Source of the DNA: Echinarachnius parma
Taxonomy: Eukaryota; Echinodermata; Echinoidea; Clypeasteroida; Echinarachniidae
DNA: 64,000 nt
Assembly (NCBI GenBank): GCA_037951105.1
Contig: JBAMJV010007700.1
Location: forward strand, 1-64,000
Direction of reading: 5' to 3'
Shown here piece after piece: positions 2,336 to 63,092 of the stretch. Position numbers and translations under genes: made by a program. Position 1 is the first letter of the stretch. Every line of letters begins with the position of its first letter. The notes below the pieces were generated by a model. It worked only from the letters and a program-made list of their open reading frames with translations, had not been told where the DNA came from and searched no databases.

Positions 2336-2478
2336 AATGCTTGCAAGGAACGACCGAACACGAGGGGTCGTGTTATTACGTCAGTCCTCAGAACATGACC
2401 CGTAACCACAGCGACATTGTGAACCTCTGCGGCGACTATGGGTTTCATCTCGTCTACGTGGAAACAGCACAAGAGCAG
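2336..2478 (+). CDS. Gene 1 exon: N-terminal half of C-type lectin domain
   Basis: The exon follows the acceptor TGCTTGACAG and ends at the donor GTATGC. It starts in phase 1 and ends on a codon boundary. It encodes a Cys at the domain start, GSCYYV (the usual opening of long-form C-type lectin domains), NLCGDYGFHLVYVET and a final EQ. This matches the beta1-helix1-helix2 part of the fold. Confidence 0.82.
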
Positions 2479-5400
2479 GTATGCGATGAATACAGAGCTC
2501 ATAGTTACGCAAAACTGATAGACCCCATATTCTGAACTAATTCCCAGTGGGAAACTCTCGTAGGCAACGGGTTCAATATGTAGATAAAGGTACTACGATA
2601 TAATATAACGCACAAGCCTAGTAAGAACGTTGTTTACATTTTAAAATGGATCCCTTACTATTCAATGCATATCTATGATTACTCTTGGAGGATATGATTG
2701 AAAAAATAAAACATTTTCTAAACATGTTCGCTGTTTTCTAACTTGTTCGCATGGCAATTATCCTGAATTTGTGCAAATGTTCTATAATTTTGTTTGTCAT
2801 AATTATCAACTCTTTAGATTTCCAAATGTATAATCAATGTTCGTATTAATTGTATTTAGATTTACTTATTTAGTTTTGACTATTATTTCAAAGAAGTATC
2901 ATTTTGAAATTGGTTTGCACGTTGTTTATTCCTAAAATCAGAATGTATATTGCTGACTAAAATACCACTGCCGTGGTTTCTATTGTATGAGGCTGTAATT
3001 TCTAATCATAATAAATGTTTAATCTGATTATTATCTTGTAAATGATACAACACATGATACACAATGATACACAATGATACACAATGATACACAATGATAC
3101 ACTAATGATAAGTATTACTTTCTAATTTATTGGTGTGATATTTTGTTTTTATTTTGTAAAAAACATTATATTTTCAACTCGACAGGCCTATCTGGAAAGC
3201 AGGCTTATTAACACTACAGCTGACTACTGGATGGGACTCACCCTTGATCCGCAAGTGGGAAACCCGTCATGGCTGGACGGAACACCTCTGACATTTGACC
3301 GAACAAACGGCGCCTCGTTTACCAATGGAGGGGAGTGTGTGAAAATAGGCGTGTCTTCAAACTATGACTGGGTGGGCCGGAACTGCAGCGATCGGCTGCC
3401 ATTCATATGCGAACGCGAGATTAGTAAGTATTGATAATAATAATCCATAAATATAAAGTGCAATATTGCAATGAATTCTCAATGCGCATACTTATATAAA
3501 TAATATTTATATTTTGGAGGAACAGAAAGTTGAACAGTTTCAGGCGTGGGGATGTAGAGTGATTCACCGCGGTTCGCAATACGTACCTAGGCCAGCTTGT
3601 GTACACTATACAATTAGCCAGTGTGTAATTCATACCGTGAGCAAGGCACTGGCAATATGGTAACGCGCATCTGATTTACGATTCCGATCCACATTTAAAT
3701 ATGGAGGGGTATAATTATGAACAAATCGGAGTGCCTATCAGTCTTTTCAGGTATCTCCAGGTTCAGTAAAACACAAAAGAATGTCAACCACAATAATATA
3801 CTATGTTCATCAAGTTGGTTATAATTTTAAGTTCCCCGTGATAGAGGATTCAAATGATGCATGAACTACCAATCGCCTTATAGTCTTACTCTCAGTCTAA
3901 TTACCTTTCTACTCTGAACCATATGTGTCATGGATTGCTTTTCATCGTTTTGTCAAGTCCAGAGAAAATCAAACTGTTGTATCATACATCTAATTGAATC
4001 ACTGTAATTGTGATTAACATGCATACGTTGATTATTTTGGTTTGTGAAGATTAAGTAAAAAGACGAAATATAATAAAAGGTCTGCATGTGCTAGATTTAT
4101 TAAACGCTCGCTACGACCGTTTATTATTCCTAGCTGTAAAATCAATATAATTCCACTAAAATATATTTTGAAGTCAGTCTTCTGAGACTAACTCTTAAAT
4201 TATAGTTTCCTGTATTATGATAAAGCCAATATTCTCGCAACTGTGTAGTGTCGGCTGGCAAAAAGTGTACAGTATCTGTAACTATGGCTGCGACGGAGCT
4301 GTAAACCATTACCCGACAAAACACATATCAAAGATATAATATATTAATACTAGATTAATTAATGTTAGATTCATCGCGGTTTCACATCCAACTTGGGAGG
4401 GTATGACTTGATACCACTGTATTACCACTGTATAGTTCACACCGTATACAGAGGTAATAATACAAATGTAATCTTGAGACAATTTGCATATTTCTTTCCC
4501 CCAAAATACTTGATACGTGTATTATACATCATTTACTCAGCATAAGGTTTATTCTGTGTTTCTCTTTGTAATGGCAGAATGCACAACCACTACACCAACT
4601 TCCACGCCGCCATCTCCACGGGCCGGTAAGTTTGCAATGTTGGTTCACTGGTCAGTCGAAAAAAACCTACCTCAAAGAACATACAGTGTGCTCATAGTGT
4701 GAACACACTGTGAACACACTGTGAGCACACCCTGAGCTCACTGTGAAATACAGTGTGAACACACTAAGAGCACACAATGATGGTACACTATTGTATAAAG
4801 TGTGAATACACCAATTTACCAACTTGAACGCACACTTGAACGGCATATCACAGTGTCATTACAAAGTCATTATACAGGTATGTGTTCACACCTTCAATAT
4901 GTTCACAGTACCGTTATCCACAGTGTGATAATTGTCGACGCTATTTAATGATCCACATTTAAAGGGGTAGTACAGTTCTGGTCCAAACTTAACCTTAGTA
5001 AGTCAAGCTTATAATTTATCATTACAAACTAACAGTTACAATGCAATGTTCCTTGGTATGTTTTCCAAAAAATGTGTAGCATTTATGATGTTTTGTTAAT
5101 TAATTATTGAACAAAATGTTGTGCCCCAACATTTATTAAATAATGATAATAATAGAGCGCCATGTGTCTAGGAGCCCTATTTCAGAGGCGCATTTATTTA
5201 CCCTTGGTCATCAGGTACAGTTCAAACCCGCACAGTTATTTTGTGCACCATCCCAACTCCCAGGGGAGCATAGGCATACTAGTCCAAGCTGCCCTAATAT
5301 GTAGAGCGCTACATGCTAATTTAACACCCGACCAAGTAGCCTACCCATTCATACTCCTGGGTAGAGAGCAGCAATGTAGATTAAATGCCTTGCTGAAGGA

Positions 5401-6513
5401 CATACAATGACGGGGCATCGATTGGGTTTGAACTCGGGTCCCGAGATCGGAAGTCATATCCGATCGTGCCACAACACCTCTATTTTCCAATGCTTTTAAA
5501 AAAAGGTGTTTTTTAAACAAAAAATTGTTTAAAGCGCCCTCTAATCAATAGCCCTACCTGTAGGCCAAATAAATATTTCATGATTTTCTTTTCTCATTTT
5601 GACTTGCACACATTATAATGCTTTAATGGATATTTGTTTTATTATATGCGAAAGAGCATCTTTTTTTGGCATCATGGCTTGATGCATGATAATGATAAAC
5701 AGCGACGGTGGTTAGTTGCGCCATGCATAGGTCACGTGGTCCACTCTGCTAGAGAGTCTAACAATGCTACAATGCTACTTTGAAACTTGTTCAATTCTTT
5801 TTCATACATCTTGTTGCTTTATATTTGCAGGCGGAATAATATCATCTTCTTTCGGGATCCTTACTCAGGGCGCCATGTTAAAGAACACCGTAGTTTACAT
5901 GCATGTAATGGCGTCTTCATTGGTCACGTGTGCTGCGCTGTGTCACTACGTGGTCTAAAAAGTTCATGAAATTCCTCTCAATATTATTTAAACATCTAAT
6001 ATTGTTTGTATTATATTGTTTGTGTTGTTTTTTTTAATTGTTTTTTAGGCGCAAGAATATCATCTTCTTTCGGGATCGTTGCTCATGGTGCCATTTTAAA
6101 GAAGACCGTAATTTACAAGAACAAGGTGGCTTCTTCATTGGTCACGTTTGCTGCGCTGTGTCACGTAGCCTAAAAATGTTTATGAATTCATAATATGTTT
6201 AGTTTGACCTTAATATTATTTATACAGCTTATGTTGTTTGTGTTGGTTTTATTTTAATTTGCATGCAGGCACAAGATTATCATCTTATTTTGGAATCGTT
6301 GCTCATGGCGCAATATTAAACAACACCGTAGTTTACAAGCACGAGGTGGCGTCTTCACTGGTCACGTGCGCTGCGCTCTGCCAGAGGGATGCCCAATGCG
6401 GATCGTTCTCCTTCATCCAACAAGAGAAGGCCTGCTTGCTCGCACCCGGTGGATTCATCGATCCTATTCACATCGAGAATCGCGAGGGCGTCAAAACATA
6501 CGCAGAGAAATAA
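2336..6513 (+). CDS. Gene 1: secreted C-type lectin with Thr/Pro linker and PAN-like C-terminus (5' partial, spliced)
   Basis: Four exons (2336-2478, 3186-3423, 4578-4625, 6269-6513) join in frame into 224 codons plus a stop. They encode a C-type lectin-like domain of about 128 residues, a 16-residue Thr/Ser/Pro linker and an 81-residue PAN/apple-like domain ending at TAA 6511-6513. Intron phases are 1, 0, 1, 1, so the lectin domain and the linker are symmetric phase-1 modules. The lectin has the WMGL core, GGEC and the terminal FICE signature with six Cys. It lacks the EPN/QPD and WND calcium-sugar motifs, so its ligand is unknown. The protein is probably a soluble recognition or adhesion factor. 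The first exon, expected to hold a signal peptide, was not found. Two truncated copies of the last exon lie in the last intron. Confidence 0.8.
3047..3104 (+). repeat. Short tandem repeat ACAATGATAC
   Basis: Five near-identical copies of a 10-bp unit, ACAATGATAC, lie in the intron splitting the lectin domain. The first and last units are slightly diverged. Confidence 0.85.
3186..3423 (+). CDS. Gene 1 exon: C-terminal half of C-type lectin domain
   Basis: This exon joins in phase 0 to the previous one (acceptor CTCGACAG, donor GTAAGT) and ends in phase 1. Its 79 codons include WMGLTLD, SWLDGTPL, GGECVKI, DWVGRNCSDRLPFICE. These are the WIGL-type core and the last three conserved Cys of the family. 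Where sugar-binding members have EPN or QPD this one has DGTP, and where they have WND it has DWVGRN. Calcium-dependent carbohydrate binding is therefore not predicted. Confidence 0.88.
4578..4625 (+). CDS. Gene 1 exon: Thr/Ser/Pro linker
   Basis: A 48-nt exon between TTGTAATGGCAG and the donor GTAAGT, phase 1 at both ends. It encodes CTTTTPTSTPPSPRA, a mucin-like hinge likely to be O-glycosylated. It joins the lectin domain (split codon gives Lys) to the PAN-like domain (split codon gives Gly). It is too short to be found as an open frame and is supported by its splice sites and phases. Confidence 0.72.
4685..4930 (+). repeat. Degenerate ACACTGTGA / TGTGAACACAC repeat block
   Basis: Roughly 11-bp units such as GTGAACACACT and GTGAGCACACC recur irregularly. 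The same motif family appears near 548-640 and at 56680-57040, so it is dispersed rather than local slippage only. Confidence 0.65.
4961..5700 (+). mobile_element. MITE family A copy interrupted by a SINE (gene 1 last intron)
   Basis: It begins AAAGGGGTAGTACAGTTCTGG, a variant of the family A terminus GGGATAGTTNAGTTTTGGTA. Shared interior landmarks are CATTACAAACTAACA, ATGATGTTTTGTTAA and AAAGCGCCCTCT. A tRNA-derived SINE at about 5160-5490 separates the two halves. The right end is not sharply defined. Confidence 0.5.
5160..5490 (-). mobile_element. tRNA-derived SINE relic
   Basis: Read on the minus strand from about 5485, the sequence has a tRNA-like promoter pair: TGGCACGATCGG (A-box-like) and GAGTTCAAACCC (B-box-like). 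Towards lower coordinates come GTCATTGTATGTCC and TTCAGCAAGGC, a type of segment common in marine-animal SINEs. There is no cloverleaf, so it is not a tRNA gene. Confidence 0.5.
5831..5958 (+). pseudogene. Truncated copy 1 of the gene 1 PAN-like terminal exon
   Basis: The acceptor TATTTGCAG is intact and the copy starts in phase 1 like the functional exon. It reads SSSFGILTQGAMLKNTVVY and continues to CAALC, then HYVV and a stop (5956-5958). Identity to the intact exon at 6269 is high up to the CAALC codons and is then lost. Three of the four conserved Cys positions after CAALC cannot be provided. It could be a decayed duplicate or an alternative last exon giving a short C-terminus. Confidence 0.7.
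6049..6172 (+). pseudogene. Truncated copy 2 of the gene 1 PAN-like terminal exon
   Basis: The polypyrimidine tract and acceptor TTTTTTAG are kept and the start is again phase 1. The copy reads ISSSFGIVAHGAILKKTV and reaches FAALCHVA before TAA (6170-6172). The first conserved Cys is mutated (TGT to TTT), which argues for decay. It diverges from the intact exon at the same codon as copy 1. The following sequence resembles that after copy 1, so a truncated unit of about 215 bp was probably duplicated. Confidence 0.7.
6269..6513 (+). CDS. Gene 1 terminal exon: PAN/apple-like cap domain
   Basis: Acceptor GCATGCAG, phase 1 start, 81 codons plus a split Gly codon, stop TAA at 6511-6513. Conserved pattern: CAALC, six residues later CGSFSFI, then CLL, and near the end REGVKTY. 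This is a four-Cys PAN/apple-like arrangement shared with the last exons of genes 2 and 3. An AATAAA hexamer (6509-6514) overlaps the stop codon. Confidence 0.85.
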
Positions 6514-6514
6514 A
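6509..6514 (+). promoter_or_regulatory. AATAAA overlapping the gene 1 stop codon
   Basis: The hexamer AATAAA spans the last sense codon and the TAA stop. If used as the polyadenylation signal, the 3' UTR would be only about 10-30 nt. No other clear AATAAA lies in the next 100 bases. It may be a chance match. Confidence 0.3.
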
Positions 6515-10420: not shown

Positions 10421-10444
10421 GTAGTTGTGAACTGCACGTATATT

Positions 10445-19871: not shown

Positions 19872-36585
<16,714 letters not shown>

Positions 36586-44360: not shown

Positions 44361-44605
44361 TTAATTGAGTTGATAGGTGTGGGCCCCCATGCGCAGGTCA
44401 ATGTGCTTCCTGTCCACCTTCGAGGCCTTGCCGAACAAGCACTCCTTCTCCAGTCCGATGAACGAGAAGGAGGCACACTGCGGATCCATCTGACAGAGAG
44501 ATGCGCATTGTATGGTGGAGTCTGCCGGGTGACTTCGATATACTACTGATGCTTTCAGAGTCGCCCCGCGGTTAACCACGTGGAACCTTCCAGACGGCGA
44601 ATTAC
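44361..44605 (-). CDS. Gene 3 terminal exon: PAN/apple-like cap domain
   Basis: Read on the minus strand: acceptor TTACCTACAG, phase 1, stop TAA at 44363-44361. Its 245 nt equal the gene 1 cap exon. It encodes [16 protein letters not shown], then [21 protein letters not shown] and RMGAHTY. Four Cys are at the same spacing as in the caps of genes 1 and 2. Confidence 0.88.
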
Positions 44606-47600: not shown

Positions 47601-50600
47601 TATTCACCAACGAAGATCAAACTAGTATTCCTTCATTGGGAACAAGTAACATCCCGAGTATTCCAGAATTAAAAATAAATGAAGATGGAGTTCTCAAGCA
47701 GTTGCAGGACCTTTCTCCAAACAAGGCATCAGGACCAGACCAAATACCTCCCTGGTTTCTGAAGATGTTTGCACCGAAACTGGCACCATTGTTAACCGAT
47801 CTGTTCCAGAGCTCCATTGACAGTGGAATTCTGCCACATCAGTGGAAGTCAGCAAACATCTGTGCAATCTTTAAGAAAGGAAATAAAGCTGCTCCAGAAA
47901 ACTACCGACCTGTCTCGCTTACCAGCGTCACATGCAAAATCCTTGAACATATAATCCATTCACATGTTATGGATCATCTAGAACAACATAACGTACTAGT
48001 GGACACACAGCATGGATTTAGAGCAAAGCGCTCCACGGAAACTCAACTTATAGCAACGGTTGATGACATTGCCAAAATACTAGATCGTGGAAATTCAGTA
48101 CATATGGCTATCCTGGACTTCACTAAAGCGTTCGACAAGGTCCCATACGAACGGCTACTGGAAAAGCTTCACTACTACGGGGTTCGACACCAGATCCATC
48201 GGTGGCTTAGATGTTTCCTGACATCCCGCACACAAAGAGTGGCTTGTGAAGGTAGTATGTCATCATCAACTGAAGTCCTGTCAGGGGTACCACAGGGAAC
48301 AGTTCTTGGACCGTTACTGTTTCTCATGTACATAAATGACCTACCGGACGTGTTGGAAAACCAAACCAGGCTGTTCGCAGATGACTGTTTGGTATACAAG
48401 GAAGTAGTGAATGAAAGGCATGCAGACTCCCTACAGGCAGATCTTACATCTCTGGAGTCATGGCAAGATAGGTGGAATATGAATTTCAACGCCTCCAAGT
48501 GTTCCTTAATGATCATCTCAAATAAGAAAAAACCACTGACAAGGGACTATATATTCTGTGGTCAAGTCTTACAACAGGCAAGATCTCATCCATACCTGGA
48601 ATAGAAATAGACAGCAAACTGACGTGGTCAAATCAGGTCGACAAGACAGTCCTCAAAGCCAACCGGACATTAGGTTTCTTGAGGAGAAACCTCTGTTCTG
48701 CCCAAGGGAAGTAAAAGACATCGCATATAAAACACTAGTAAGGCCTGTACTGGAGTACGCAACCTGTGCCTGGGACCCATATAGAGTAGGGCAAATAAAT
48801 AAACTGGAAGCAGTCCAAAGGAGAGCAGCACGTTTCACAACTGGAAATTATCAGAGGGACAGTAGCGTCACGCAAATGCTGACCGACCTAAACTGGGAGA
48901 CATTGGAGCAAAGAAGGGAAAAAAGTCGACTAGTTATGCTGTACAAAATCCACAAGGAAAAGGTTGCTTTAAAGCAAGAGGACTATGTTAAGATGTCAAC
49001 GGGGTCAAAAACAAGAAAAAACCACCAATACTCGATAGAAATCCTCTATGCTAGAAAGGATGTATACAAATACTCCTTTTTCCCAAGAACAAGTATTGCG
49101 TGGAATACACTCGACCAACAGTCTCTGCTAGCTTCATCTGCAGAGAGCTTCAGGCACACACTCTAGCATGCACTGCCTGCCCTAATAAAGTTAGCGACAT
49201 GCGGAGTACCGCCCTGCTGACTACAACTTCAGAAGGTTCAGAAGGTATTGAGATTGACATGATCAAAAACTCATTGAATGGCTGAGCATGCTAATAGACT
49301 TTGATATTCTACTGTAGCTTTTAGAGGATCTCCGAGGTTAACCACGTTGTACCTATCAGATGGCAAACTACATGTAGATAGCGATATGATAATAATGGAA
49401 TTAAATATGTCAACAAGGATACTGATGCCCCCAAAACAGAAAATAAGCGAACAAGAAAAACGTACTAATTACATTTGTTCTTTTAGTGTTAGTGTAATGT
49501 TGAGCAGTATGCTGGTGAACAGAAAGCAGATCGCCTTGATAAAGTATAGTAGGATATCATGAAAGAAATGCAAAGCGATATTCGCTTACTCAGTGCAATG
49601 ACTACTAGTTTTTACGTAATTATAACATTCATGTAGGTTGTTACAAATTAGAACGCTTCAATCGTATATAACTTTTTAACGAAAGGGTAATTCGAAAAAC
49701 GGAAACCTGCTCCACGCTTATATTTTGAATACAACAAGGTATGAACAAAACGACTACCTTTCTAAGGAAATATGTGTGGATTTGGACAATGTTACCTAAT
49801 CCCTTTAAATAGACAAAGATATACCATTATTAAATCAATGTGTTTTCTATTTGATAGGTTCTAGAAAGATCACCGATTTCTTTAATATTTTAAACGGATC
49901 TAGTAACGTTGTCTATAAATGCAAAAACTGATGAAGAGTTGATACAATTTGTATTTATGTGATGTGACAAGTCCACTGAGCATGCTGAGTGATGTGTGTA
50001 AATTCCACGCTAAATCAATGTCATATGACTAAGTAAAAGCGAAAATGCAGAGTTATATTTGTTAACTCATTGCAGTAATTTTCAATTCATCAAAATACAT
50101 GTATATGGTAGATTCCTAGATATTTGTTTTAATTCTGGTATAATTATTGCAAGCCAGCCGTTAGGATATCAAATAAAAGATTCCTGATCCTTACATTGCC
50201 TGATTGAAAATAAATTGAACAATTAAGTTTCCACATATTTGTTTTGTGAATTGGTTCTGGGAGTTACTTAGTAACTTACCGTGGATTTCGCAGTCGGTTC
50301 CCTTGTATCCGGTCGGGCAGGCACAGCTGTAGGCTCCAACATGATCGGTACAAGTCCCTGAGTTCTTGCACGGAGATAAGGCACAATCGTCGGTATCTGG
50401 TTGGAAGACAAGAAATGTTTTAATTATTGCCAAGCATGACCTCTAGTATCATCCAGCTACACCTGGGGATGTGAGGCACATCACATCGGGGCGATGTTAT
50501 CCAAATGGAAGATTTTACTTTATACTTGTTTCTAATGAATTTACCTTTCGTAAAATATAGGCAGACGTGATGTGTTAATTCTGAATACAACAATAGCCTA

Positions 50601-53600
50601 AAAGGGGAATCCAATTATTATTTCAAGCATTCGTGTCCGGGCAACTATCACAATGTTGTTATATTAATGTAATTAATGTAATTTAATAATGAAATTAATG
50701 TAATTCAATACAAACAGTACCGCCGGGGGGGGGGGGGGGGGGGGCACTTGCCCTACCCAGACATTATTTTACCCAAAAAATAAAAGCATAAGGGGAAGTT
50801 CGTCAACAAAAACAGAAATGCATAGTGTACGTGCCCAAACCTCCCCCAAATAACCCCTCTCCCCCCCCCCCCCCCCCCCAAAAAAAAAAAAATATATATA
50901 TATATATATAAAATACAAAAATCTAATTAATGAAATAAATATAGATAAATAAATAAACAAATCAAATAAATAAACAAAAGAATGAATAAAAAATAAATAA
51001 ATAATAAGAACATAATTCAATCCGCGCAAGCTACGCCACCAAATAAAAAGGTAGGGACACTACAAATAATCACCTGTCTGGCAATACGTCCCCTCGAATC
51101 CGTACTCACACTCGCAGGTGTAGTTGCCATGGATGTTGTGGCACGTTGCCCCATTTTCACACTGATGACCCGTGTCACACTCGTTAACATCTGGTGGTAA
51201 GTGAGAGCAAAACTTGTATTACTAATATCACTGTTATAATTATTTTGTCTCTTATTATTACTGTTATTACTATTGATAGTATCATTATTAATAGTAGTAA
51301 TATAAGTATTGATACTATTACAATGATTATTACTGTAATTATTGTTAGTATTATTACCTTTTGATTGTGCATGAAATACAAACATCAAATAATACAATAT
51401 GACACAGAATCATTCTTATATATTTACAGTACGTACATCTTAATGTCCGTTGCTCTTGATCGACTTGCCCGGGTATGGAAAAGGTTTCCCTAATAACTGT
51501 AGTCCGCAGATCTTCTACAAATGTATTTTGTGTGTGTGTGCGTGTTATTTTTATGATTAGTGGAATTCACATATTTCATAATAATAATATGTTTATGAAT
51601 AAAACAATACCAAAATGTACGAAAAGGATAGCAAGGTCTAAACATCCTTTCCAAAGTGGGTCTCCCTATTAAATCGTACATCTACATTATTAAAACAACA
51701 AAAGGAAACGATTTACTATATTCATATTAACTGTTCAAACATTCTTGAACGTTTTAGTGAATATGTTTCAAATCTTTATGCTAATTAAGTTCACATCCAC
51801 TTTTACCACATTCTGCATTACCGTCGTTACCACCATCTCACCCCAATTATCAATATCATTACGACCATCATCGCCATTGTCATCATCACTATCATAATCG
51901 TCGTCATCATCATCATTAAAATCGTCATGAGCATTATCAATATTACCATTCATCATCTATATCATGACCAGCAAATTGTTCTTACCGGTTTCGCAGCTCC
52001 TCTCCGCATAATGTCTTTATCTTCATAATCATTATCATCATCATCACCATCACTTTTACCACAAAAATCACCATCCCCACCATCATTTTCACTATCCTTT
52101 CATTATTATCATCATAACTATCAACTATCGTCACTATCAACATCATGTTAATCACCATCATTGTCATCGTCATTATCATATTTCTTACCGTCCTCGCAGT
52201 GGGTGCCCTCATATCCGTCAGTGCAGTTACAGGAAAAGCCATCCATGGAGTCCACACATGTCCCTCCATTCAGACAGGGTGATGACTCGCATTCGTCCGC
52301 ATCTGCCAATTTCAATGAGATAAAATGCTTTTTTTTTGGTTTACAACAACGATGTTCGTGTTAACAAAACTATCGTTGTACGCGTCCAAACTGGTAATTA
52401 CTTTTCGAAGAAAACAAATGCATGCTACCCCTAAAACAAGAACATAAACAAACTGTAACTTGAACAAAACTTACTCAAATCTAAATATAATTCAAATTAT
52501 TTATTTCTTTATCACGTCTATATTTTTGCTACTTTTTAGTAACCAACAAAAATAAGGACAATCAAACTAAATCTTCTGCAACAAAACTGTCAACGAAAAA
52601 CAACAAGACATGAATAGAACATTCTAAATAAACTAAAACTGCCTAAAAAAAGAATACCTGTCTCGCACTGTGGTCCTTCCCATCCTGGAGTGCAGATGCA
52701 CTGGTAGCCGTTGACTAGGTCCGTACATGAAGCCCCATGTTGGCATGGTGTAAGTGTTACGCATTCATCGATTTCTGTGGGCAGGATGAAATGAGAAGTA
52801 ATTTGATTGGAAATTCACCATATACTCAACGGATTGTTTGTACGCATGTATAACAAGTTATTTGTTAACCCATGTCTTAACACGTTAATTGATACAATAA
52901 TGTTGGATAATATACATATCGTATTATAAAGGATAATACATGATATGGGAGACATGATATCACAATGCTGAAGAGATGTACAACATGTGATCGTATGCAT
53001 GGTATAAATTGAGCATACATCTTAAGAATAATAATACATATAGAGGCTTCTAACGCGCCAATTCCACCTTTTGCAATGTGCTCAGGGCGCAGTTAACTCA
53101 TCTTCACACATTTGAACACAATTTTAAACAACATAAAACATAAACATATTTAACAAAAATCATAATGAAACTACTGGAAGTTACTGATATGCAACTTGAA
53201 AATATATGTTTTCAAACTAGTCTTACAGGATTCTAAAGACGTAATATGTACAATGTGTTGGGTTAGCTCATTCCAGAGTGAAGGACCCGCATGTACAAAA
53301 GCCCTGTCCTCTATGATCTTTGCCAATTTCCTCGAAAATGTACATTACTTGTTCACACACAAAAAAACACCCGTTAAAGTGATCATTAATAGTTTTTGCT
53401 GTCGTAAATCTTGTGATTTTGATTGCTTTCTAGGATAGTGATTAGTTGTTAAAAGGTGTATTGATTTAAATAGAGAACACGTATTTATGTGAGGTCTCTA
53501 ATACCCAAATCTCCAACAGAGGTTTAATCCACCAATCACTAATTTGCCAGTTTGTTATGTAATCACAAGGCCCCTTTGACTTATAATACACAAGATTGTT

Positions 53601-56600
53601 TCAGAATTGCTTGTTTTTTCATTACCCAGTGTGTATTCACACTGACAACGAACTAATTTAACGATTGGCAAAAAACCTGTATACTAGGGCCTTGGGTTTA
53701 CCCAACTTAAATTGTATAACCCTTTTTACTTAGAATGAAGGGAATAAATTTCATTTCAGGTTTAGTAATGTAATTTCATCGTTAAGCAATAACAACAAGT
53801 GAAATGTTTACAAAAAAAAACATGATTTTTAAAGACTAAATCAACGTTGTTTGATCAAAATTGGTCCAGAGCAAGATTTTTAAAAATCCGTAATATTTCC
53901 AATTTCAATAATTGTTGTATCAGATTGTTTATAACACATAGTCTACAAAAACACAAAGGAAATGATCCCGATAGTTAGACTACAGATTTATTGTCATATC
54001 TTGTAAGATGTTAATCGTTTATAACTGTGAACTATCAAACTTGGCTGAGTGGATGCACATAATCATAATGGGACAGCCTGTAGCCGGCAATAAAAGGATG
54101 CAAAAGAGGGACATGACTACCAGTCCAAAGCTTTATGTCACCTATACCTACCTGTTTGGCAGTTGGTGCCCGTGTATCCAGCCGCACAGTCACAGGAAAA
54201 GGAGCCGACCAGGTCATTGCAATTACCTCCATGTTGGCATGGTGATGAAGTACATTCGTCGATCTCTGATCATATCATAACAATAAACACATTTTAAAAA
54301 GCCGTGCGTGAGACATGTAAATGTATTCATAACGAGGATACTTCATAACGAGGATACTAGGCATATATCTTACTTTAAAGGGACCTAGTAAATATATTGA
54401 ATCGTTTGACACTCTAGACACAATGCAATACTTGCTTATTGCAGGGATGCCACTGGGTCGCCTCCAAAAAACCGGAAACACAACGCGGCAGACGTAACTC
54501 TCCGTGTATAGCGTATGCACTGCACTGCCGTTCGATCGCGTGTACATACATGAAATACATGTATACTGCGTACGTATTGAAAAACGGCTACCGGTGTGTT
54601 AAGCGAATGGTCTTCCTCTCTCATTCGAGTGCGGTATACCATACGCTATTCAATGCGAGCGCGCGCTCGTTACAACGGTATTCCCATATATTATATGCGG
54701 AATGTCATGAGTAAAAGATGCGCACGCACGCTGTAGACAGGAAAAGAAAATGATTTGAAGAGACGGGGAGAGGGGGAGAGAGGGAGTGAAAGACGGAACT
54801 TTTTTTGATTGATGACGGAAAAACCGGAATTCCGTCTAAAACCGGAAAAGTGGCATCCCTGTTATTGCACCACAAAAAAGGTGTTTACCAATGGACGGTC
54901 CTGCATCAGGCCTGTATTTAGGAACCAAAACCACAGTTCTAGTTTTTGCAATGTTAATTGGATGGAAGGTTGGGTTATATTACACCTCTGGTCATTCAAT
55001 ATTATACAATTAGTGCATGGTTTGGAGTTGAATATACCAGAATAGACAACGATACATTTTTAATTTCTCGAGAGCGATTATATTGCATCGAGGCCGCAGG
55101 CCGAGTGCAATATAATCGCACGAGAGAAATTAAAAATGTAGAGGTGTCTATTATGGAATATTTAACAACAGGAATCATGTACTAATTGTTATATAAGATG
55201 ATGACACTCAGGAGCTGATATGTAGATTTCCATGAACACGGATCATGACAAGTGACATGAAGTTACTCTTCATAATGAAGAAGAATGATGTGTACTCACC
55301 AAACTAGTAGCCTTAGGCCTATGCCGAATCAGTCAATCATTGAAATTTGTCCTCAAATGTTTTATTGCTGACACGGTCCTCTTGAAAACACTTTATAAAT
55401 GTATTTTAAAATGTAAAATAGGCCTAGTCTAAATGTTGTTACTGCTGACCGCTTCGCGTAATAGCTCCCACCCGTTGCCCTGGCGCACCTCGGCGCGGCG
55501 TAGAACGACCGTAGAAATTAGACCAGTTCATCCTTTAGCTCCGTTAGAATGGCATCAAAATCACTGTCTTTCTCGGTACAATATGACCACACAACTCGAA
55601 TAGAGAACGCAATGACTACTTTGGTTTTCTTCGAGTCCATATTATCTATCAATTGTCCGAGATCGTCCTCCGAAATTGTTGGAAAACGGTTTGTTTCTTC
55701 GCTGGTAGCCATAATTGCAACTTGTTTGTATCATATCACTGCATGCACCCGCCGCGAGAAAAAGTTGAACAAATTTGCTATCGCTAATTTCGTATCGGTT
55801 ACAATCGAATAAAAAAAGGCCCACTGACATTAATACAAAAATGCGAAACACGATATATCGTTTTATTAAACACCCAGAATATATCGTTATATCGATAGTA
55901 AGACAATTATCGTATCGCCATTGTTTTGGCATCGTTTGGGTGGTCTATGGGAAATTTGTACGTCACTGAAAAGTTATAATACATATGTATTATAACTTTA
56001 CCATTGATTATACCGGATTAAGCATCGGTAATCAATAGGACCAATAGGAACGCTCAATTTCCCTTAATTATGACGTCATCATCTTATATAACAAATTATT
56101 ATTACAATCACGTGACTGTGTTAAGCCAATCATTGACGCGTATTTTACTATTAATAAAGCCAGATGACATAAGAAGATAATACTGACCCACTTCACAGCT
56201 GACACCGGTATAAAACGTCGGACAGTTACAGTGGAATGCGTTGGGGAGATTGTGACAGGTGCCCCCATTGATACAGGGGGAAGAGAGACACTCGTTGATT
56301 CCTGAAAGATGATGATACAAACGATGATAATTTGATAAAACTAATATCATCATCAACAACAACAATACTGAGAATAATTATAATCAGAAGAAAAAGAAGA
56401 AGATGGATAAGAAAAAGAAGAAGAAGAAGAAGTAGAAGACAAAAACAAAATGATAACAAATATAATTATACTCATACAATGTAGCGATAGTAGTGTAAGT
56501 TTATGACATTTATGTGGTGGTTTTTGTTAATTTTGTTGTTTTACAAACCTATATACTCTGATATGTTCCTATGTCATACCACCCTCTCAACCTCCAATAT

Positions 56601-59600
56601 CTGATCTTTAATGTCAAAGTGCTTCACAATAGAACAATATCGCTATCGGAAAACATAAGAATGTGTGACAGCTAGTGTGAACACAGCCAGTGTGTAAACC
56701 ATGTTAAATTGAAGTATTTCAACAGCTCACCACACTGTGAGCCCACCCTGTGTTCTACACTGCGAATCTCAGTATGCTCAAACTGTGTTCAACACTTTGA
56801 AATACAGTGTGGACACACTGTGGTCTAATTGTGAAATACAATTGGCTGAAGCAAGTCCACACTGTACGTGACACAGAGTGTACCCTCCCTGGTTCACATT
56901 GTATATGACACACAGTGTGCGCACACTGGTTCACATTGCATAATGACACACAGAGTGCACACTGGTTCACATTGCACTTGACACACAGTCTGTTCACGCT
57001 AGTCCACATTGTGACACACAGTGTGCTCACAGTATGACATGCTATATTTATGTTCCTCTGGTTCGGAGGCTCTAAAAAGGAAGAAAGCTTGAATGTTCTT
57101 ACCGTTATCACACAAGATATGAGTCATATTGTCTGGACAGTCACAGATGAACCCGTTGACGAAATCCGTGCAATTGGCTTCCGCGGGGCATGGCGACGAA
57201 ACACACTCATCAATATCTGCACAATATAAGAGTAAGCTGTGATTAGTGGTGTTATTAATGGACTTTTCTATAACATGCTCATTAATTAACTGGTACGTGA
57301 CATCTCACGATAAAGCCCCTCCCCCACGTTCACCCATTATTCAGTCACTTGTTTTAGTCGATCAGTACCAACATGGATTTATAGGGATCTAGTAAGTTTG
57401 TTGGCATGTGCAAAAAGGGGCTGTTATGTGGCAGAGTAATGAGCGAAAATGCAAAGTGATATTCACTATTCATTGCAGTGATTTTTACACGCTTATGTCT
57501 ATCCAGTGGATAGTTTAAAATCCAAACACTTCAATCGTAAATATCTGTTTAATAAAAGGGAAATACGAAAGACCGAAACCTGTCCCATGATTCTATAGTT
57601 ATTACGAATACAACAATGTATATGAGAAATTAGGGGCAGCCAATAGCTTTTAGGGTGTTGCCCATTCGGCACATGCAAATGAGCACCGTAAATGGATTCC
57701 TTGCCCCAAATTACCCTAGAATAATCGTTTTTATCAATATTGTACTATTCCTAGATAGAAAATGACCCCTGACCACATTTCAGAAATATGCAAATTAGCT
57801 AATTATCTTTATAATGCAAATTAAACCACTTTCCCTAGCTTCGATTTCTTAGGACTTTTATTATGTTGTTCAGGGGAGTTTACTGAGCAGAATTCCGAAG
57901 AACATTCCCATGTTGTAAATTTGCCGAGGTCAAGACCCTATATTGACTGGACTAACATTTTCGAACGACACAGAACATACCTGACATTTGGCTCGCTGGT
58001 ATAGCGTCCGTCTCATGCACGGAGCGGTCGTGGGTTCGAACCCCGGCCTGGTCATACCAAACATGCCAAAAATCATTATAAAAATGATTCTTACTGCCTT
58101 TTAGCAAATCGCTCGGTATATATAGAACGGTGAAGGGGAACGATAATATTAATGTTATGCAGGCCCCTCTGGAAGAGTGTCGATCGTCTCTAGAGTGGCT
58201 ACCCTAGTACGGTACGGTAAATAAGACTTTATTATAGTATTAACATTATCATTATTAACTCACCAATTGTACAATTAGTTCCGTTGTAACCCATCGCGCA
58301 GGAGCATTGATATGAGTTCACCAGATCTTCACAAGTGGCTCCATTTTGGCACGGTGCAGATTGACACTCGTTAACATCTGGTAAAAATAATCAATAATAC
58401 AATTATGGTGCACACAATGTGTGCTGGTTCGCATCGTATCCTATGACCGGGGTAATAATAAAATTGTAAAGCGCTTAGAGATGATTATCAATCGTGATAA
58501 GCGCTATATACAAATTGGATATTATTATTATTTATTATTAATTATCAATGGAATGAATAACAGTCAATCACATTCCCGACAAAAGTGGAAGCGTTTGTAG
58601 TCCCGCTATAGCGGGATATTGGATAATTCATTAGTTGTCGTTCGCTCAACTCAGCCTCGATGCGCAAAGTGAATGGACACACGCCTTCCGTTCATCATGT
58701 TCATGGCATGATTGTTATTATAACCAAATAGCATTTTTGGGAAACGCCCCATGCACACAAATATATCTCTTTCATTACCGGCTGTATCAAAAGATACACC
58801 ACTAATGTAAACTATATGACAACATCTGCTTTGAAATTGACAATTCGAGCAATAAAATGTTCAAAATGGAAAATGTCAAGGTACAGATTGAATTCAACCG
58901 CATTACAAACCACGTGCAACCCACGATGCGTGCGAATTTAGCGTCTGGCCACAGCCACCGTTCCCAGCGAAAGTGGGCAGAATTAGCCGTTAAATGTCGG
59001 CCCAATTTCAGCGGCGGGGATGGAACTTTCCTTATACATTACTTCTGTATTTCAAATAAACGATGTTATGGTTCAGATTTTACCATAATATTATCAACCA
59101 TCTGTTATACTTATGGGCCGGTCATACTTACGGTATTGGACGTAGTGATCCGTAGGGTAATTTAATGTGGGTCAGACGTGGTGTAAGTACGTTAAACTAG
59201 GTTAAACTAAGTTGAACAACGTGGAACTACGTTGAATTACGTTAAGGTACGGTGGTTGGCCACGGAAGGGTACGGATAAGTACGTTTAAGTACGCTAATG
59301 TGGGTACAGCTGGCTCACGGACAGGTACGGAGTGGTACGTCTGACTACGCTTGAGTACGAGAGACTGCGGTAGCCACTACGCTGGACTACGCTAAAGAAC
59401 GTCAAACTACGGTAAATAGCTGCAACCAGTGGCGTAGCTACGGGGGGGCACGGGGGGAAACGTGCCCCCCCCCCCCCCCCCCCCCCAATCGTTTGGCAAA
59501 AAAAAAAAAAAAAAAAAAAATGACGACCCGACATGAAGCCAAATGTGTCTACAATGTATATCATTCATTATTATCACGTTTTATTTAATGTGTGATAATA

Positions 59601-62600: not shown

Positions 62601-63092
62601 GGAAATTGTCATACTGGGAAGTATCTGTTATTGTCTCGCTATACAAAAAAGATTTTAAAATAGATAAATACAGGGACAAAGTCTTATGACTATTTATCAA
62701 AACGTGTTTGATATTTTTGTCTACACCTTATGTGTACCTCGCATAAGATTCTTTATGTGTACCTCGCAGAAGATTATTTTTCCCGCAGCGTCCTCTATTC
62801 CAGAAATGTATTGTCTCTTTAAGGAGTATTGATCCTTTGTTATATTGCTCAACCCGTTCTAGTCCAGAAATACTCGGGCAGTGTTAAGTGGAAATTTCGT
62901 ATCGTATACTGTAAAACTGAATCGTCTTCGATGGATTAATGTATATCCTTAAATTGATGTATTCGATTGGTTATATACCTGTGAGGCAACGCGTTCCAGA
63001 GTATCCATCCACACAGGCGCAGGTGTATTCGTTTACAGCGTTATTGCACGTCCCTCCGTTTTGACAGGGAGATGAGCTGCATTCATCAATAT
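44361..63092 (-). CDS. Gene 3: secreted multi-EGF protein with PAN-like C-terminus (5' partial, spliced)
   Basis: Ten exons on the minus strand join in frame (transcript order): 63092-62979, 58377-58264, 57216-57103, 56301-56188, 54265-54152, 52774-52658, 52302-52189, 51190-51074, 50396-50280, 44605-44361. They give 426 residues plus stop. Nine are single-EGF exons of 114 or 117 nt, all phase 1-1. The tenth is the PAN/apple-like cap. Most EGFs begin D.(D/N)EC and have an aromatic residue before Cys4, consistent with calcium-binding EGF units forming a rod. No membrane segment is present. The 5' end, including the signal peptide, lies beyond the right edge of the window. The protein is probably an extracellular adhesion or recognition molecule, related to genes 1 and 2 only through its cap. 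A LINE and several DNA elements fill its introns. Confidence 0.87.
44740..45380. mobile_element. 640-bp foldback element next to the gene 3 cap exon
   Basis: Arms of about 300 bp (44740-45040 and 45062-45380) are reverse complements around a centre near 45050. The ends are CTATACAGGG and CCCTGTATAG. Paired landmarks are GGGCCATTCTTCTGAGGCAA / TTGCCTCAGAAAAATGGCCC and CGCATGACCGCTCTCCCTTT / AAAGGGAGAGCAGTCATGCG. Its ACAGGGTG-type end resembles that of the element at 59691. The several open frames inside are reflections of each other. Confidence 0.88.
45519..45568 (-). pseudogene. Decayed copy of the gene 3 cap exon, relic 1
   Basis: On the minus strand the acceptor ATCTACAG is kept and the phase is right. 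The copy reads [15 protein letters not shown] and then stops (TGA). The intact exon reads [17 protein letters not shown] at this place. All Cys codons are gone. It lies about 0.9 kb upstream (in transcript sense) of the functional exon. Confidence 0.65.
45678..46127 (+). pseudogene. LINE leader with 2A-like motif and first PHD finger
   Basis: The open frame ends at a TAA (46125-46127); the same frame resumes directly after it with [19 protein letters not shown], so this is a single nonsense mutation. Before the PHD finger it has [16 protein letters not shown], which aligns with the 2A consensus D(V/I)ExNPGP but has Ser for Glu and Asp for Asn. The first finger contributes CETC, CSDC, HHATC and, past the stop, CPAC. 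Confidence 0.75.
46203..46931 (+). pseudogene. LINE fragment: second PHD finger and N-terminal half of APE endonuclease
   Basis: [16 protein letters not shown] and CPIC form a PHD-type finger, followed by a Ser/Asn-rich hinge. The endonuclease starts [11 protein letters not shown], then [10 protein letters not shown] (catalytic Glu region) and HGGVLVACK. Near 46875 the frame shifts; the next frame continues [19 protein letters not shown]. Further endonuclease landmarks (AGDFNQP, then [11 protein letters not shown] and [12 protein letters not shown]) are seen up to about 47215 in shifted frames. Confidence 0.8.
47489..48604 (+). pseudogene. LINE reverse transcriptase core
   Basis: 371 codons open. 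RT landmarks in order: [64 protein letters not shown] (motif A), [20 protein letters not shown] (motif B), LFADDCLVY (motif C) and MNFNASKC (motif D). The frame is lost after about 48590 at RSHPYLE. The core itself looks catalytically intact; the element as a whole is not. Confidence 0.9.
48558..49166 (+). pseudogene. LINE C-terminal tail
   Basis: The downstream frame encodes [56 protein letters not shown], and ends SAESFRHTL before the stop TAG (49165-49167). This is the well-conserved tail of CR1/L2/Jockey-type proteins. The first 50 codons of this frame are out of register with the true protein. Confidence 0.82.
49271..49371 (-). pseudogene. Decayed copy of the gene 3 cap exon, relic 2
   Basis: On the minus strand it reads [20 protein letters not shown], then [12 protein letters not shown] and TGA. 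The intact exon reads [20 protein letters not shown], then [13 protein letters not shown]. The stop falls exactly at the codon of the first conserved Cys (TGC to TGA). The acceptor CAG has become CAT. Similarity ends at the stop, a few bases from the end of the LINE. Confidence 0.75.
49560..50110. mobile_element. Two MITE family B copies side by side
   Basis: One copy ends GTTACCTAATCCCTTTAAAT at about 49789-49808 (interior AACTTTTTAACGAAAGGG). The next begins TTTAAACGGATCTAGTAACG at about 49889. Both lie in the last intron of gene 3. Outer edges are uncertain. Confidence 0.6.
50280..50396 (-). CDS. Gene 3 exon: EGF-like domain 9 (last before the cap)
   Basis: 117 nt, phase 1-1. It reads [33 protein letters not shown]. 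Asp replaces the usual Glu before Cys1. The split codon at its end gives Gly with the cap exon. Confidence 0.92.
50720..50912. repeat. Poly-G, poly-C, poly-A and (TA)n tracts
   Basis: G18 near 50726-50744, C18 near 50861-50879 followed by A13 and a TATATA run to about 50910. A GCTACGCCAC motif lies further right at 51030. Open frames here are low-complexity. Confidence 0.85.
51074..51190 (-). CDS. Gene 3 exon: EGF-like domain 8
   Basis: 117 nt, phase 1-1, donor GTGATT. It reads [34 protein letters not shown]. The calcium-binding consensus is present (DVNEC, Tyr before Cys4). One residue longer between Cys1 and Cys2 than most of its neighbours. Confidence 0.92.
51770..52160 (-). repeat. ATC/ATG trinucleotide-rich stretch
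   Basis: Imperfect CAT/ATC repeats produce Asp-rich and Met-rich frames. At 51988-52012 a short sequence reads, on the minus strand, GAGCTGCGAAACCG followed by the donor GTAAGAA. It resembles the 3' end of an EGF exon, perhaps a deleted exon remnant. Confidence 0.6.
52189..52302 (-). CDS. Gene 3 exon: EGF-like domain 7
   Basis: 114 nt, phase 1-1, donor GTAAGA. It reads [32 protein letters not shown]. Calcium-binding type. Confidence 0.92.
52658..52774 (-). CDS. Gene 3 exon: EGF-like domain 6
   Basis: 117 nt, phase 1-1, donor GTATTC. It reads [33 protein letters not shown]. The split Glu codon is completed by the previous exon. Confidence 0.92.
53040..53440. mobile_element. Possible LINE/SINE-derived segment in gene 3 intron
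   Basis: Segments such as TTAGCTCATTCCAGAGTGAA and ACAAAAGCCCTGTCC resemble the 3' regions of LINE copies seen in many aquatic animals. This is from memory of the pattern; no reading frame supports it. Confidence 0.25.
54152..54265 (-). CDS. Gene 3 exon: EGF-like domain 5
   Basis: 114 nt, phase 1-1, donor GTAGGT. It reads [32 protein letters not shown]. Calcium-binding type. Confidence 0.92.
55030..55167. mobile_element. Small foldback repeat, about 138 bp
   Basis: Arms AATATACCAGAATAGACA / TGTCTATTATGGAATATT continue through ACATTTTTAATTTCTC and GATTATATTGCA with their complements. The loop GGCCGCAGGCC is itself palindromic. It is GC-poor except at the centre. Confidence 0.75.
55518..55712 (-). 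pseudogene. Possible DUF3504/Crypton-related N-terminal fragment
   Basis: A 64-codon minus-strand frame begins [18 protein letters not shown] and continues [20 protein letters not shown], then [17 protein letters not shown] before a stop. The arrangement F..(I/V)(S/T)E.DL, DSK.TK....., a basic/aromatic helix and (D/E).L..EL resembles the conserved N-terminal segment of Crypton-related (DUF3504, ZMYM/KCTD1-like) proteins that are frequent in marine invertebrate genomes. The recognition is from memory and moderate. The downstream catalytic part is absent, so if the family call is right this is a truncated gene copy or a single exon. It lies in an intron of gene 3 on the same strand. Confidence 0.4.
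56188..56301 (-). CDS. Gene 3 exon: EGF-like domain 4
   Basis: 114 nt, phase 1-1, acceptor ATCTTTCAG, donor GTCAGT. It reads [32 protein letters not shown]. Gly instead of Asp at the first calcium-ligand position may weaken calcium binding. Confidence 0.92.
56340..56460 (-). repeat. GAA/CTT-rich microsatellite
   Basis: AAGAAGAAG-type purine tracts next to ACAACAACA. Leu/Phe-rich minus-strand frames are artefacts. Confidence 0.8.
56680..57040 (-). repeat. Degenerate ACACTGTG/CACAGTGTG repeat block
   Basis: Irregular units such as TGACACACAGTGTG, CACTGGTTCACATTG and GTGGACACACTGTGG. Same motif family as at 548-640 and 4685-4930. Located directly downstream of the EGF 3 exon in transcript sense. 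Confidence 0.7.
57103..57216 (-). CDS. Gene 3 exon: EGF-like domain 3
   Basis: 114 nt, phase 1-1, donor GTAAGA. It reads [32 protein letters not shown]. All six Cys are kept, but the usual NGG/NGA before Cys3 is replaced by AEA and the GY.G turn after Cys5 is missing, making this the most diverged EGF of the array. Confidence 0.9.
57379..57620. mobile_element. MITE family B copy (one clear end)
   Basis: It begins TTATAGGGATCTAGTAAGTT. The interior contains GAGCGAAAATGCAAAGTGAT, CTATCCAGTGGATAG and AAAAGGGAAATACGAAA, shared with the 12.0-kb and 49.6-kb copies. The right end was not resolved. Confidence 0.65.
57985..58245 (+). mobile_element. tRNA-derived SINE with tRNA-Met-like head
   Basis: The head (about 57991-58060) has TCCGT-CTCATGC-ACGGA, an anticodon stem-loop with CAT, followed by GTGGGTTCGAACCCCGG, a T-arm with perfect B box. 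No acceptor stem pairs with CCTGGTC, and the D-arm is irregular, so it is not a working tRNA gene. A body with TGGAAGAGTGTCGATCGTCT and a TAAATAAGACTTTATTATA tail follows, as expected for a SINE. Confidence 0.6.
58264..58377 (-). CDS. Gene 3 exon: EGF-like domain 2
   Basis: 114 nt, phase 1-1, donor GTGAGT. It reads [32 protein letters not shown]. Calcium-binding type. Confidence 0.93.
58455..58545 (+). mobile_element. SINE/LINE 3' tail fragment with (ATT)n
   Basis: GTAAAGCGCTTAGAG and AAGCGCTATATACAAATTGG followed by ATTATTATT is the widespread 3' tail shared by L2/CR1-type LINEs and their partner SINEs. Only the tail is recognisable. Confidence 0.55.
59691..60043. mobile_element. 353-bp MITE with TACAGGGTGGCCC ends
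   Basis: The left arm starts TACAGGGTGGCCCCCAAAAA and the right arm mirrors it. Inverted similarity extends about 120 bp (AACGGGGCACTTCCCAAAAT, ATCGGATAG, ACGATACCAAGAACAG with complements). The unique centre is about 100 bp. Innermost of three nested elements. Confidence 0.85.
60660..61450 (+). repeat. Three copies of a GGGAGGGGG / CCCTCCCACACCCTCCCCC module
   Basis: Modules at 60829-60900, 61147-61187 and 61372-61446 each have GGGAGGGGG, a short spacer and CCCTCCCACACCCTCCCCC. The first and third continue with CGCTWCGCTYCCTCGCA. Each is an imperfect palindrome able to fold back. Overlapping plus-strand frames are Pro-rich by-products. Confidence 0.75.
61963..62978. other. Gene 3 intron 1 remainder, nothing recognised
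   Basis: No exon or repeat edge supported between the outer foldback element and EGF exon 1. Confidence 0.5.
62979..63092 (-). CDS. Gene 3 exon: EGF-like domain 1 (first in window)
   Basis: 114 nt, phase 1-1, acceptor AAATACAG, donor GTATAT. It reads [32 protein letters not shown]. Calcium-binding type. Its phase-1 start requires at least one more exon to the right of the window. Confidence 0.93.

What the first reader, a model, noticed from the sequence alone, without database searches (positions are those of the whole stretch)
2336..63092. Three neighbouring genes with different recognition modules share one C-terminal cap exon
A C-type lectin gene, an SRCR-EGF-discoidin gene and a multi-EGF gene each end in a phase-1 last exon of 245, 248 and 245 coding nt. 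All encode the same four-Cys PAN/apple-like pattern: C.xLC, C.SFS.I, CL, then R.G..TY. The modules in front differ completely. This looks like a local gene family made by exon shuffling onto a conserved terminal exon, plausibly diversifying secreted recognition or adhesion factors. PAN/apple domains are known to mediate protein-protein or protein-carbohydrate contacts; a common partner for all three caps is inference.
Basis: partly seen in the sequence, partly recalled or inferred. Interest (0 to 1): 0.78.

Follow-up and report, generated by a model that had tools for sequence, protein, structure and literature searches.

The report
One PAN cap, many recognition modules
Several echinoderm genes that carry different extracellular binding modules (lectin, scavenger-receptor, EGF, discoidin) all end in the same kind of last exon, an ordinary small PAN domain, which suggests that evolution changed the front parts around one fixed tail; what the tail does is not known.

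Summary
Three genes in the window end in phase-1 last exons of 245, 248 and 245 nt with the stop. All three encode a four-Cys PAN_1 domain above Pfam's cut-off. Inferred splice joins give near-complete or complete Lectin_C, SRCR and F5/8C domains in genes 1 and 2.

The family is not local. The genome (an echinoderm, by mitochondrial genes) holds 17 close full-length caps, alleles included, on the window contig, C7835, C6040 and seven more contigs, plus a more distant cluster near C-type lectins. All 28 of 28 caps tabulated stop 0-5 codons after the match. Front ends, by proximity: CTLD; CTLD-kringle; SRCR-EGF-F5/8C; SRCR-EGF; SRCR-multi-EGF; multi-F5/8C.

The history is mixed. F5/8C caps and their F5/8C modules spread together by gene duplication. 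Two of gene 2's closest SRCR relatives are on capped contigs. Module gain, loss or exchange at phase-1 introns would explain the rest. Trees of 80-residue caps cannot decide whether the window caps form one clade (p-AU 0.07, 0.12).

Known means, a fixed terminal PAN exon. Function is inference; structure prediction could not be run.

The parts
2336..2478 (+). gene 1, CTLD exon A (143 nt, phase-1 start)
   Evidence: acceptor ..TTGACAG, donor GTATGC; joined with exon B gives Lectin_C 4-107/107, E 1.3e-15 for the joined protein with cap
3186..3423 (+). gene 1, CTLD exon B (238 nt), donor A|GTAAGT in phase 1
   Evidence: Lectin_C alone 26.4 bits for the ORF
5831..5958 (+). cap fragment 1: from its acceptor through the first half of the cap to a stop
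   Evidence: 69% identical to cap1 over 36 aa, E 2.8e-12; sequence; dN about equal to dS against fragment 2
6049..6173 (+). cap fragment 2, nearly the same truncation
   Evidence: 69% identical to cap1 over 42 aa, E 3.6e-14; sequence
6269..6513 (+). cap 1: terminal PAN exon of gene 1 (CTLD), 245 nt with stop
   Evidence: PAN_1 32.3 bits, cut-off 21.4
21339..21484 (+). gene 2, SRCR exon, N-terminal half (phase-1 start chosen among three candidate acceptors, phase-0 donor)
   Evidence: SRCR 57.2 bits for the ORF; boundaries
25293..25458 (+). gene 2, SRCR exon, C-terminal half (phase-0 start, phase-1 donor)
   Evidence: SRCR 40.4 bits; joined halves SRCR 1-100/100, E 1.2e-30
29366..29485 (+). gene 2, EGF exon (phase 1-1)
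   Evidence: EGF 29.2 bits, boundaries
34142..34301 (+). gene 2, F5/8C (discoidin) exon a, phase-1 start
34805..34997 (+). gene 2, F5/8C exon b
   Evidence: F5_F8_type_C 53.9 bits; boundaries chosen among those
35599..35728 (+). gene 2, F5/8C exon c, start approximate (acceptor not placed), phase-1 donor
   Evidence: joined exons F5/8C 1-127/127, E 7.2e-26; donor
36338..36585 (+). cap 2: terminal PAN exon of gene 2 (SRCR-EGF-F5/8C), 248 nt with stop
   Evidence: PAN_1 29.0 bits
44361..44605 (-). cap 3: terminal PAN exon of gene 3 (multi-EGF), 245 nt with stop
   Evidence: PAN_1 29.6 bits
49274..49360 (-). cap fragment in the last intron of gene 3
   Evidence: 55% identical to cap3 over 29 aa, E 3.7e-4
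50280..50396 (-). gene 3, EGF exon nearest the cap (phase 1-1)
   Evidence: EGF 32.7 bits, boundaries
51074..51190 (-). gene 3, EGF exon
   Evidence: motif, boundaries
52189..52302 (-). gene 3, EGF exon
   Evidence: motif, boundaries
52658..52774 (-). gene 3, EGF exon
   Evidence: motif, boundaries
54152..54265 (-). gene 3, EGF exon
   Evidence: EGF 38.3 bits, boundaries
56195..56301 (-). gene 3, EGF exon; donor not placed, low end is the motif end
   Evidence: motif, acceptor
57110..57216 (-). gene 3, EGF-like exon; donor not placed, low end is the motif end
   Evidence: motif, acceptor
58264..58377 (-). gene 3, EGF exon
   Evidence: EGF 38.4 bits, boundaries
   Evidence: EGF 28.7 bits, donor

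Best explanation
The window holds three members of a genome-wide family of mosaic genes made of extracellular modules. Their last exon, usually about 245 nt and entered in phase 1, encodes a four-Cys PAN domain plus the stop. Because this exon carries the stop and no donor, it can only be the end of a protein. Exchange, gain or loss of whole phase-1 modules (CTLD, SRCR, EGF, F5/8C, in one case kringle) upstream of it changed what sits in front while the tail stayed. Ordinary gene duplication then multiplied each combination, in clusters. Shown here: the exon anatomy, the phases, the front-end types by proximity, the terminal position, and lower dN than dS in cap duplicates. Inferred: splicing, secretion, the order of events, and function. 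Most likely function: the front modules recognise a target, and the constant PAN tail makes one common contact, for example with matrix glycans, a sister chain or a coelomocyte receptor.
For: Caps are PAN_1 above cut-off. Whole-genome searches with each cap give 17 close full-length places, alleles and C6040 included. 28 of 28 places tabulated stop 0-5 codons after the match. A script found a phase-1 acceptor for 21 of 28, and 20 of those 21 exons are 245 or 248 nt. It missed 7. By eye one of these has the window's acceptor, and six have TCAG|G inside the match, also phase 1. Front ends: SRCR and EGF on C2736, F5/8C on C1973 and C2356, EGFs on C6995; SRCR halves on C6995 about 1 kb upstream of its EGFs; CTLD on C9811, CTLD plus kringle on C7622. 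Gene 2's SRCR has close non-allelic relatives on capped contigs: C-half C2736 first and C6995 second (61.8 bits, next 61.5); N-half C6995 first. On C7689, C2736 and C6995 alike the two SRCR halves lie apart. Cap duplicates have dN below dS: 0.028/0.194, 0.022/0.150 and 0.050/0.151 among the three cap2 copies, 0.048/0.171 for the C1973 pair, 0.042/0.076 for the C2356 pair.
Against: No transcript was seen, and modules are assigned to caps by proximity and phase. Cap trees are poorly resolved: 8 of 21 and 12 of 19 inner branches are open, so the number and direction of swaps is not shown. Much of the pattern is co-inheritance: the F5/8C modules of the capped genes are each other's closest relatives, and the CTLD of gene 1 is closest to CTLDs on PAN-bearing contigs. 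In the N-half SRCR search C2736 ranks only eighth among non-allelic hits. The cap has no feature that sets it apart from a PAN domain except position and the four-Cys pattern. Nothing here tests what it binds.
Confidence: 0.62

Rival explanations
1. Plain descent with module loss. One ancestral gene, for example SRCR-EGF-F5/8C-PAN, was duplicated, and copies lost or repeated modules. A separate CTLD-PAN family is equally old. No exon was ever shuffled onto the cap in this lineage.
For: F5/8C modules and caps are co-inherited (15 of 15 hits below 1e-11 on cap-bearing contigs). Gene 2, C2736 and C6995 share related, split SRCR halves. CTLD-PAN neighbourhoods exist elsewhere as a cluster. An SRCR N-half hit at C1187:99781 (-) lies about 11 kb upstream of a PAN exon of that cluster, so SRCR may once have stood there too.
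Against: Cap1 sits behind a CTLD whose best non-allelic relatives are on C7622 and C1187 (45%). Yet cap1's best non-allelic cap hits are those of F5/8C and EGF genes (62-65 bits), against 33-39 bits for the caps of C7622 and C1187. The AU test does not reject one CTLD-cap clade (p 0.24), so this is only a hint.
Confidence: 0.27
2. Local homogenisation. Gene conversion between neighbouring caps in the cluster keeps them alike, so resemblance reflects proximity and not a shared role.
For: Cap3's best non-allelic hits in the genome are cap1 and cap2. The three window caps as one clade is not rejected (p-AU 0.068 and 0.124).
Against: The caps are only 38-47% identical, too diverged for recent conversion. 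Cap2 is closer to caps on other contigs.
Confidence: 0.06
3. The caps are short independent genes or unused exons, and the upstream modules end elsewhere.
For: No RNA evidence. Inferred introns before the caps are 0.6, 2.8 and 5.7 kb in the window. Partial cap fragments show that the exon is also copied without function.
Against: Acceptor phases match the phase-1 donors of the preceding modules. Similar orders recur on independent contigs. Cap duplicates show lower dN than dS.
Confidence: 0.05

Closest known systems
PAN/apple domain, Pfam PAN_1 (PF00024); four-Cys core as in the plasminogen N-terminal PAN and the apple domains of Toxoplasma MIC4
   Same: Profile match above cut-off for all three caps. 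The four Cys align with the core of MIC4 (4a5v, whole-chain E 2e-8, best single stretch 0.0015) and, weakly, plasminogen (E 0.05).
   Different: Four Cys where the classical apple domain has six (the count of six is recalled). Last exon in every place tabulated here.
Echinoderm SRCR mosaic genes (sea urchin SRCR superfamily, PMC10855680; passages seen)
   Same: SRCR with EGF-like and F5/8C modules, tandem clusters, exon-intron divergence between sibling paralogues examined as exon shuffling.
   Different: 'PAN domain' and 'apple' do not occur in that text. Here the same tail also sits near CTLD and multi-F5/8C genes in which no SRCR was seen in the stretches read.
Plasminogen/HGF-type proteins (PAN followed by kringles; recalled)
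   Same: PAN and kringle in one gene neighbourhood on C7622.
   Different: There PAN is N-terminal and a protease or protease-like domain ends the chain. Here PAN is C-terminal, after CTLD and kringle.
Snail FREPs (recalled)
   Same: A fixed C-terminal domain behind variable front modules in a secreted invertebrate family.
   Different: Fibrinogen domain, not PAN; Ig domains in front. Used as an analogy only.

Membership tests
PAN_1 domain (PF00024) | whole-protein score at or above Pfam's gathering score of 21.4 bits | tested here: met
   32.3, 29.0 and 29.6 bits for caps 1-3
PAN_1 domain (PF00024) | PAN fold: helix held to a central beta sheet by the core disulfides | not testable with these tools
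Apple domain (six Cys, three disulfides; definition recalled) | six conserved Cys | tested here: not met
   each cap has four Cys
Phase-1 exon-shuffled extracellular modules | module flanked by phase-1 introns | tested here: met
   CTLD, SRCR, EGF and F5/8C as whole modules start in phase 1 and the module-end donors that could be placed are phase 1; cap entered in phase 1. Boundaries were chosen among candidate AG and GT sites; two EGF donors and one EGF acceptor were not placed
Ca-dependent sugar-binding C-type lectin | EPN or QPD triplet and WND motif (recalled) | tested here: not met
   gene 1 CTLD reads SWLDGTPLTF and YDWVGRNCSDRLPFICE: no EPN, QPD or WND (sequence). The fold matches Lectin_C 4-107/107
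SRCR domain | full-length match to PF00530 | tested here: met
   1-100/100, E 1.2e-30 after joining two exons; group A versus B not tested
F5/8 type C (discoidin) domain | full-length match to PF00754 | tested here: met
   1-127/127, E 7.2e-26 after joining three exons

The most novel reading that the evidence does not exclude
The PAN exon is a universal docking tail. Echinoderms plug different recognition heads (lectin, scavenger-receptor, EGF, discoidin, kringle) onto one terminal cassette that meets a single shared partner, so that many targets feed into one effector route, like an opsonin kit. The broken half-copies of the exon upstream of caps 1 and 3 would then be the scars of the recombination that makes new combinations.
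Probability: 0.1. Interest if true: 0.72.

Novelty: new variant of a known kind. Interest (0 to 1): 0.42.

Why it matters
Echinoderms are known for very large repertoires of SRCR, lectin and Toll-like genes, but how new combinations of modules arise is mostly inferred. A fixed terminal exon with about six kinds of front end in one genome gives a countable case. The tail is a marker with which products of the process can be found, and a common tail makes the question of a shared partner directly testable.

Tried and rejected
Local origin of all three caps: tested by best hits and by AU tests. Neither shown nor excluded. Cap trees used 24 and 22 of the 30 aligned rows (near-identical rows dropped) and 78 columns, with many open forks; not used to count swaps. 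Architecture and contig labels gave 3 and 7 fewest changes. No shuffled control was printed, and cap 3 was labelled SRCR there without proof, so no weight is put on them.

Cap fragments as alternative last exons: fragments 1 and 2 have an acceptor and an open frame to a stop. Against each other dN is 0.166 and dS 0.161, which looks neutral. Against cap 1 they give 0.149/0.452 and 0.120/0.511, which does not; 36 codons, few changes. I read them as leftovers, but a truncated isoform is not excluded. A first run with a frame slip gave false values for the comparisons with cap 1 and for the C2356 pair; corrected.

Gene 3 starting with SRCR: SRCR-like exons lie on the minus strand of C7835 at 123 and 141 kb, upstream of the cap 3 allele. 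No such hit on C7689 beyond the window was listed, and that stretch was not read; left open.

Carbohydrate binding by gene 1's CTLD: the classical motifs are absent. Poly-A signals: the first AATAAA after each stop was printed but means little in DNA of this composition.

Eight bore on the question, three of them with no paper at all (8, 38, 41); one search was about MIC4. From the listings, none is on a terminal PAN exon in echinoderms, within that open-access library only. The cap family may be described elsewhere.

Organism class: echinoderm is inferred; sea cucumber or sea urchin was considered and not decided.
Full report
What is there. The 80-81 residues are 38-47% identical in pairs and share all four Cys. 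Each is a PAN_1 domain above Pfam's curated score. In the Protein Data Bank the profile of the three finds mostly PAN/apple proteins: Toxoplasma MIC4 (whole-chain E 2e-8, best single stretch 0.0015), then weakly plasminogen, a kelch-domain protein, MIC5 and factor XI. The four Cys line up in the MIC4 and plasminogen alignments shown.

What precedes the caps. Gene 1: exons 2336-2478 and 3186-3423 join to a nearly full C-type lectin domain (4-107 of 107) and end in phase 1, which fits cap 1. The motifs of Ca-dependent sugar binding (recalled) are absent from its sequence. Gene 2: an SRCR domain split by a phase-0 intron, one EGF exon and a three-exon F5/8C domain. Gene 3: nine EGF motifs on the minus strand, four of which I scanned and which pass PF00008. 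Its start was not found. The donor phases printed for minus-strand EGFs are shifted by one, because my script cut the core one base short; corrected, those that were placed are phase 1. Boundaries were chosen among the candidate sites that the call lists.

Which genome. The window is the first 64 kb of a 97.8-kb contig in a 1.2-Gb assembly of 14,790 contigs. The one cytochrome oxidase 1 match reads canonically with AAA as Asn and ATA as Ile. It is followed by ND4L and COX2. Code and gene order point to an echinoderm; that reading is from knowledge.

How far the cap spreads. Searches with each cap give 17 full-length places with E at or below 1e-10 in at least one search: three in the window contig, four on C7835 (its alternative contig: 99.2% over 1,047 bases at cap 1), one on C6040, and nine on C2505, C2736, C1973 (two), C2356 (two), C10760, C11381 and C6995. 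C6040 matches the window at cap 3 over 1,885 bases without a mismatch apart from one gap, but its next 1.4 kb has no window match, so it is redundant assembly or a recent copy. More distant PAN exons cluster on C1187, C7622 and C9811. I tabulated 28 places (17 close, 11 distant). All 28 of 28 reach a stop 0-5 codons after the match. Left out of the 28: four cap fragments; the weaker hits C4913 and C3725, which stop 20 and 13 codons after shorter matches; C1187:32068, C10736 and C12379, not examined. A script placed a phase-1 acceptor for 21 of 28, and 20 of those 21 exons are 245 or 248 nt, one 266. For the other seven it chose a wrong AG once and found none six times. By eye these too are phase 1; the six are about 230 nt long by my count.

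Other PAN domains of the genome. PF00024 alone finds at least 111 places. Of its eight best, with other Cys patterns, five stop 2-4 codons after the match, and three run 10 to 17 codons past it, so may be internal. PAN at the end is thus common here but not shown to be a rule of all PAN exons.

Front modules elsewhere. Ten kb upstream of six caps were read. C2736: SRCR and EGF, no F5/8C motif, and no F5/8C hit on C2736 or C2505 in the genome search, which scored 150 of 656 candidates. C1973 at 110 kb: F5/8C. C1973 at 51 kb: an F5/8C motif, and an F5/8C hit at 64 kb. C2356, two caps: repeated F5/8C motifs; of three stretches scanned from one of them one reached 26.9 bits against a cut-off of 28.2 and two gave nothing, but the F5/8C exon search hits this contig six times below 1e-12. 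Thr-rich stretches lie between in at least one. C6995: four EGF motifs with SRCR halves at 74.4 and 75.1 kb. On C9811 a Lectin_C exon lies about 1.1 kb before one cap, and a CTLD end by eye before another. On C7622 a CTLD and a kringle (E 2.5e-23) lie 6 and 3 kb before the cap. An SRCR N-half hit lies on C1187 at 99.8 kb, 11 kb upstream of a PAN exon on the same strand, so the lectin cluster may not be free of SRCR.

How it came about. All 15 of 15 F5/8C hits below E 1e-11, self and alleles included, lie on cap-bearing contigs, and the next is at 4e-7: the F5/8C-cap genes look like duplicates of one another. Of 1,450 first-look SRCR candidates, 150 scored, gene 2's C-half is closest to its allele, C2736 (83.7 bits) and C6995 (61.8; next C12118 at 61.5). 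Its N-half is closest to its allele and C6995, with C2736 eighth among non-allelic hits. In these three genes the two halves lie apart (0.6 to 3.8 kb), whereas they are adjacent in, for example, C3719. So SRCR-EGF-F5/8C-cap, SRCR-EGF-cap and SRCR-multi-EGF-cap look like one lineage in which EGF number and F5/8C presence changed. Gene 1 is the best hint of exchange. Its CTLD is nearest to CTLDs on C7622 and C1187, but cap 1's best cap hits are of F5/8C and EGF genes (62-65 bits), against 33-39 for the caps of those two contigs. An AU test does not reject a single clade of CTLD caps (p 0.24), so this is not proof.

Constraint and wear. Duplicated caps have lower dN than dS: 0.028/0.194, 0.022/0.150 and 0.050/0.151 among the cap 2 copies, 0.048/0.171 for the C1973 pair, 0.042/0.076 for the C2356 pair. 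Allelic pairs of caps 1 and 3 differ too little to say. Two half-copies of the cap, with acceptor and intron tail, precede cap 1 on both contigs, the three units spaced 218 and 220 bp. One stands before cap 3 in the window and three on C7835. Between themselves the two before cap 1 show dN equal to dS; against cap 1 they do not.

Copy number. C7835 carries two caps of gene-2 type (44.1 and 68.2 kb), each with an F5/8C hit upstream; the window has one. Only one SRCR C-half hit near them was found on C7835, so the second copy may be partial. A LINE in the last intron of gene 3 is present in the window and absent on C7835.

Prior work. Sea urchin SRCR genes with EGF and F5/8C modules, in tandem and with exon-intron divergence examined as exon shuffling, are in print (PMC10855680, passages). 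A sea cucumber preprint describes SRCR diversity (PMC13228809, passages). Neither text contains 'PAN domain' or 'apple'. Eight literature searches on the question listed nothing on a terminal PAN exon, three of them returning no paper (listings only).

Verdict. A real, genome-wide family built by known means around a fixed terminal PAN exon. The proposed role is untested.

Noticed in passing
window 45605-49252: LINE-type retrotransposon (RVT_1 E 3e-34) in the last intron of gene 3, absent at the matching place on the alternative contig C7835, so apparently polymorphic.
   Followed up: partly
L040, L041 (C7835:68176 and 44116) against window 36338-36585: The alternative contig has two caps of gene-2 type about 24 kb apart, the window one: a copy-number difference between contigs that look allelic.
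   Followed up: partly
window 5831-6173; L012:1924-2037, 2139-2189, 2973-3059; window 49274-49360: Repeated broken half-copies of the cap exon just upstream of caps 1 and 3; the two before cap 1 carry an acceptor and are cut at nearly the same codon.
   Followed up: partly
L080:83-580 and 2798-3391 (C7622): C-type lectin domain followed by a kringle domain upstream of a terminal PAN exon, an unusual order.
   Followed up: partly
L013 (C6040) against window 44242-46126: C6040 matches the window over 1,885 bases with no mismatch and one gap, then diverges downstream of gene 3: redundant assembly or a recent copy, so genome counts may be inflated.
   Followed up: no
C1187:99781-99915 (-): SRCR N-half hit about 11 kb upstream of a PAN exon in the lectin-PAN cluster; whether it belongs to that gene is unknown.
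   Followed up: no
G000, many contigs: 1,450 and 1,765 first-look candidates for the two SRCR halves (150 scored each): probably a very large SRCR repertoire, as known from sea urchins.
   Followed up: no
C1187:122351, 124412, 126470: Three PAN exons at 2.06-kb spacing that translate identically: a recent tandem array.
   Followed up: no
window 24250-25150: Long ACTT-type tandem repeat, open in several frames as LTYLLTYLL, just before the second SRCR exon.
   Followed up: no
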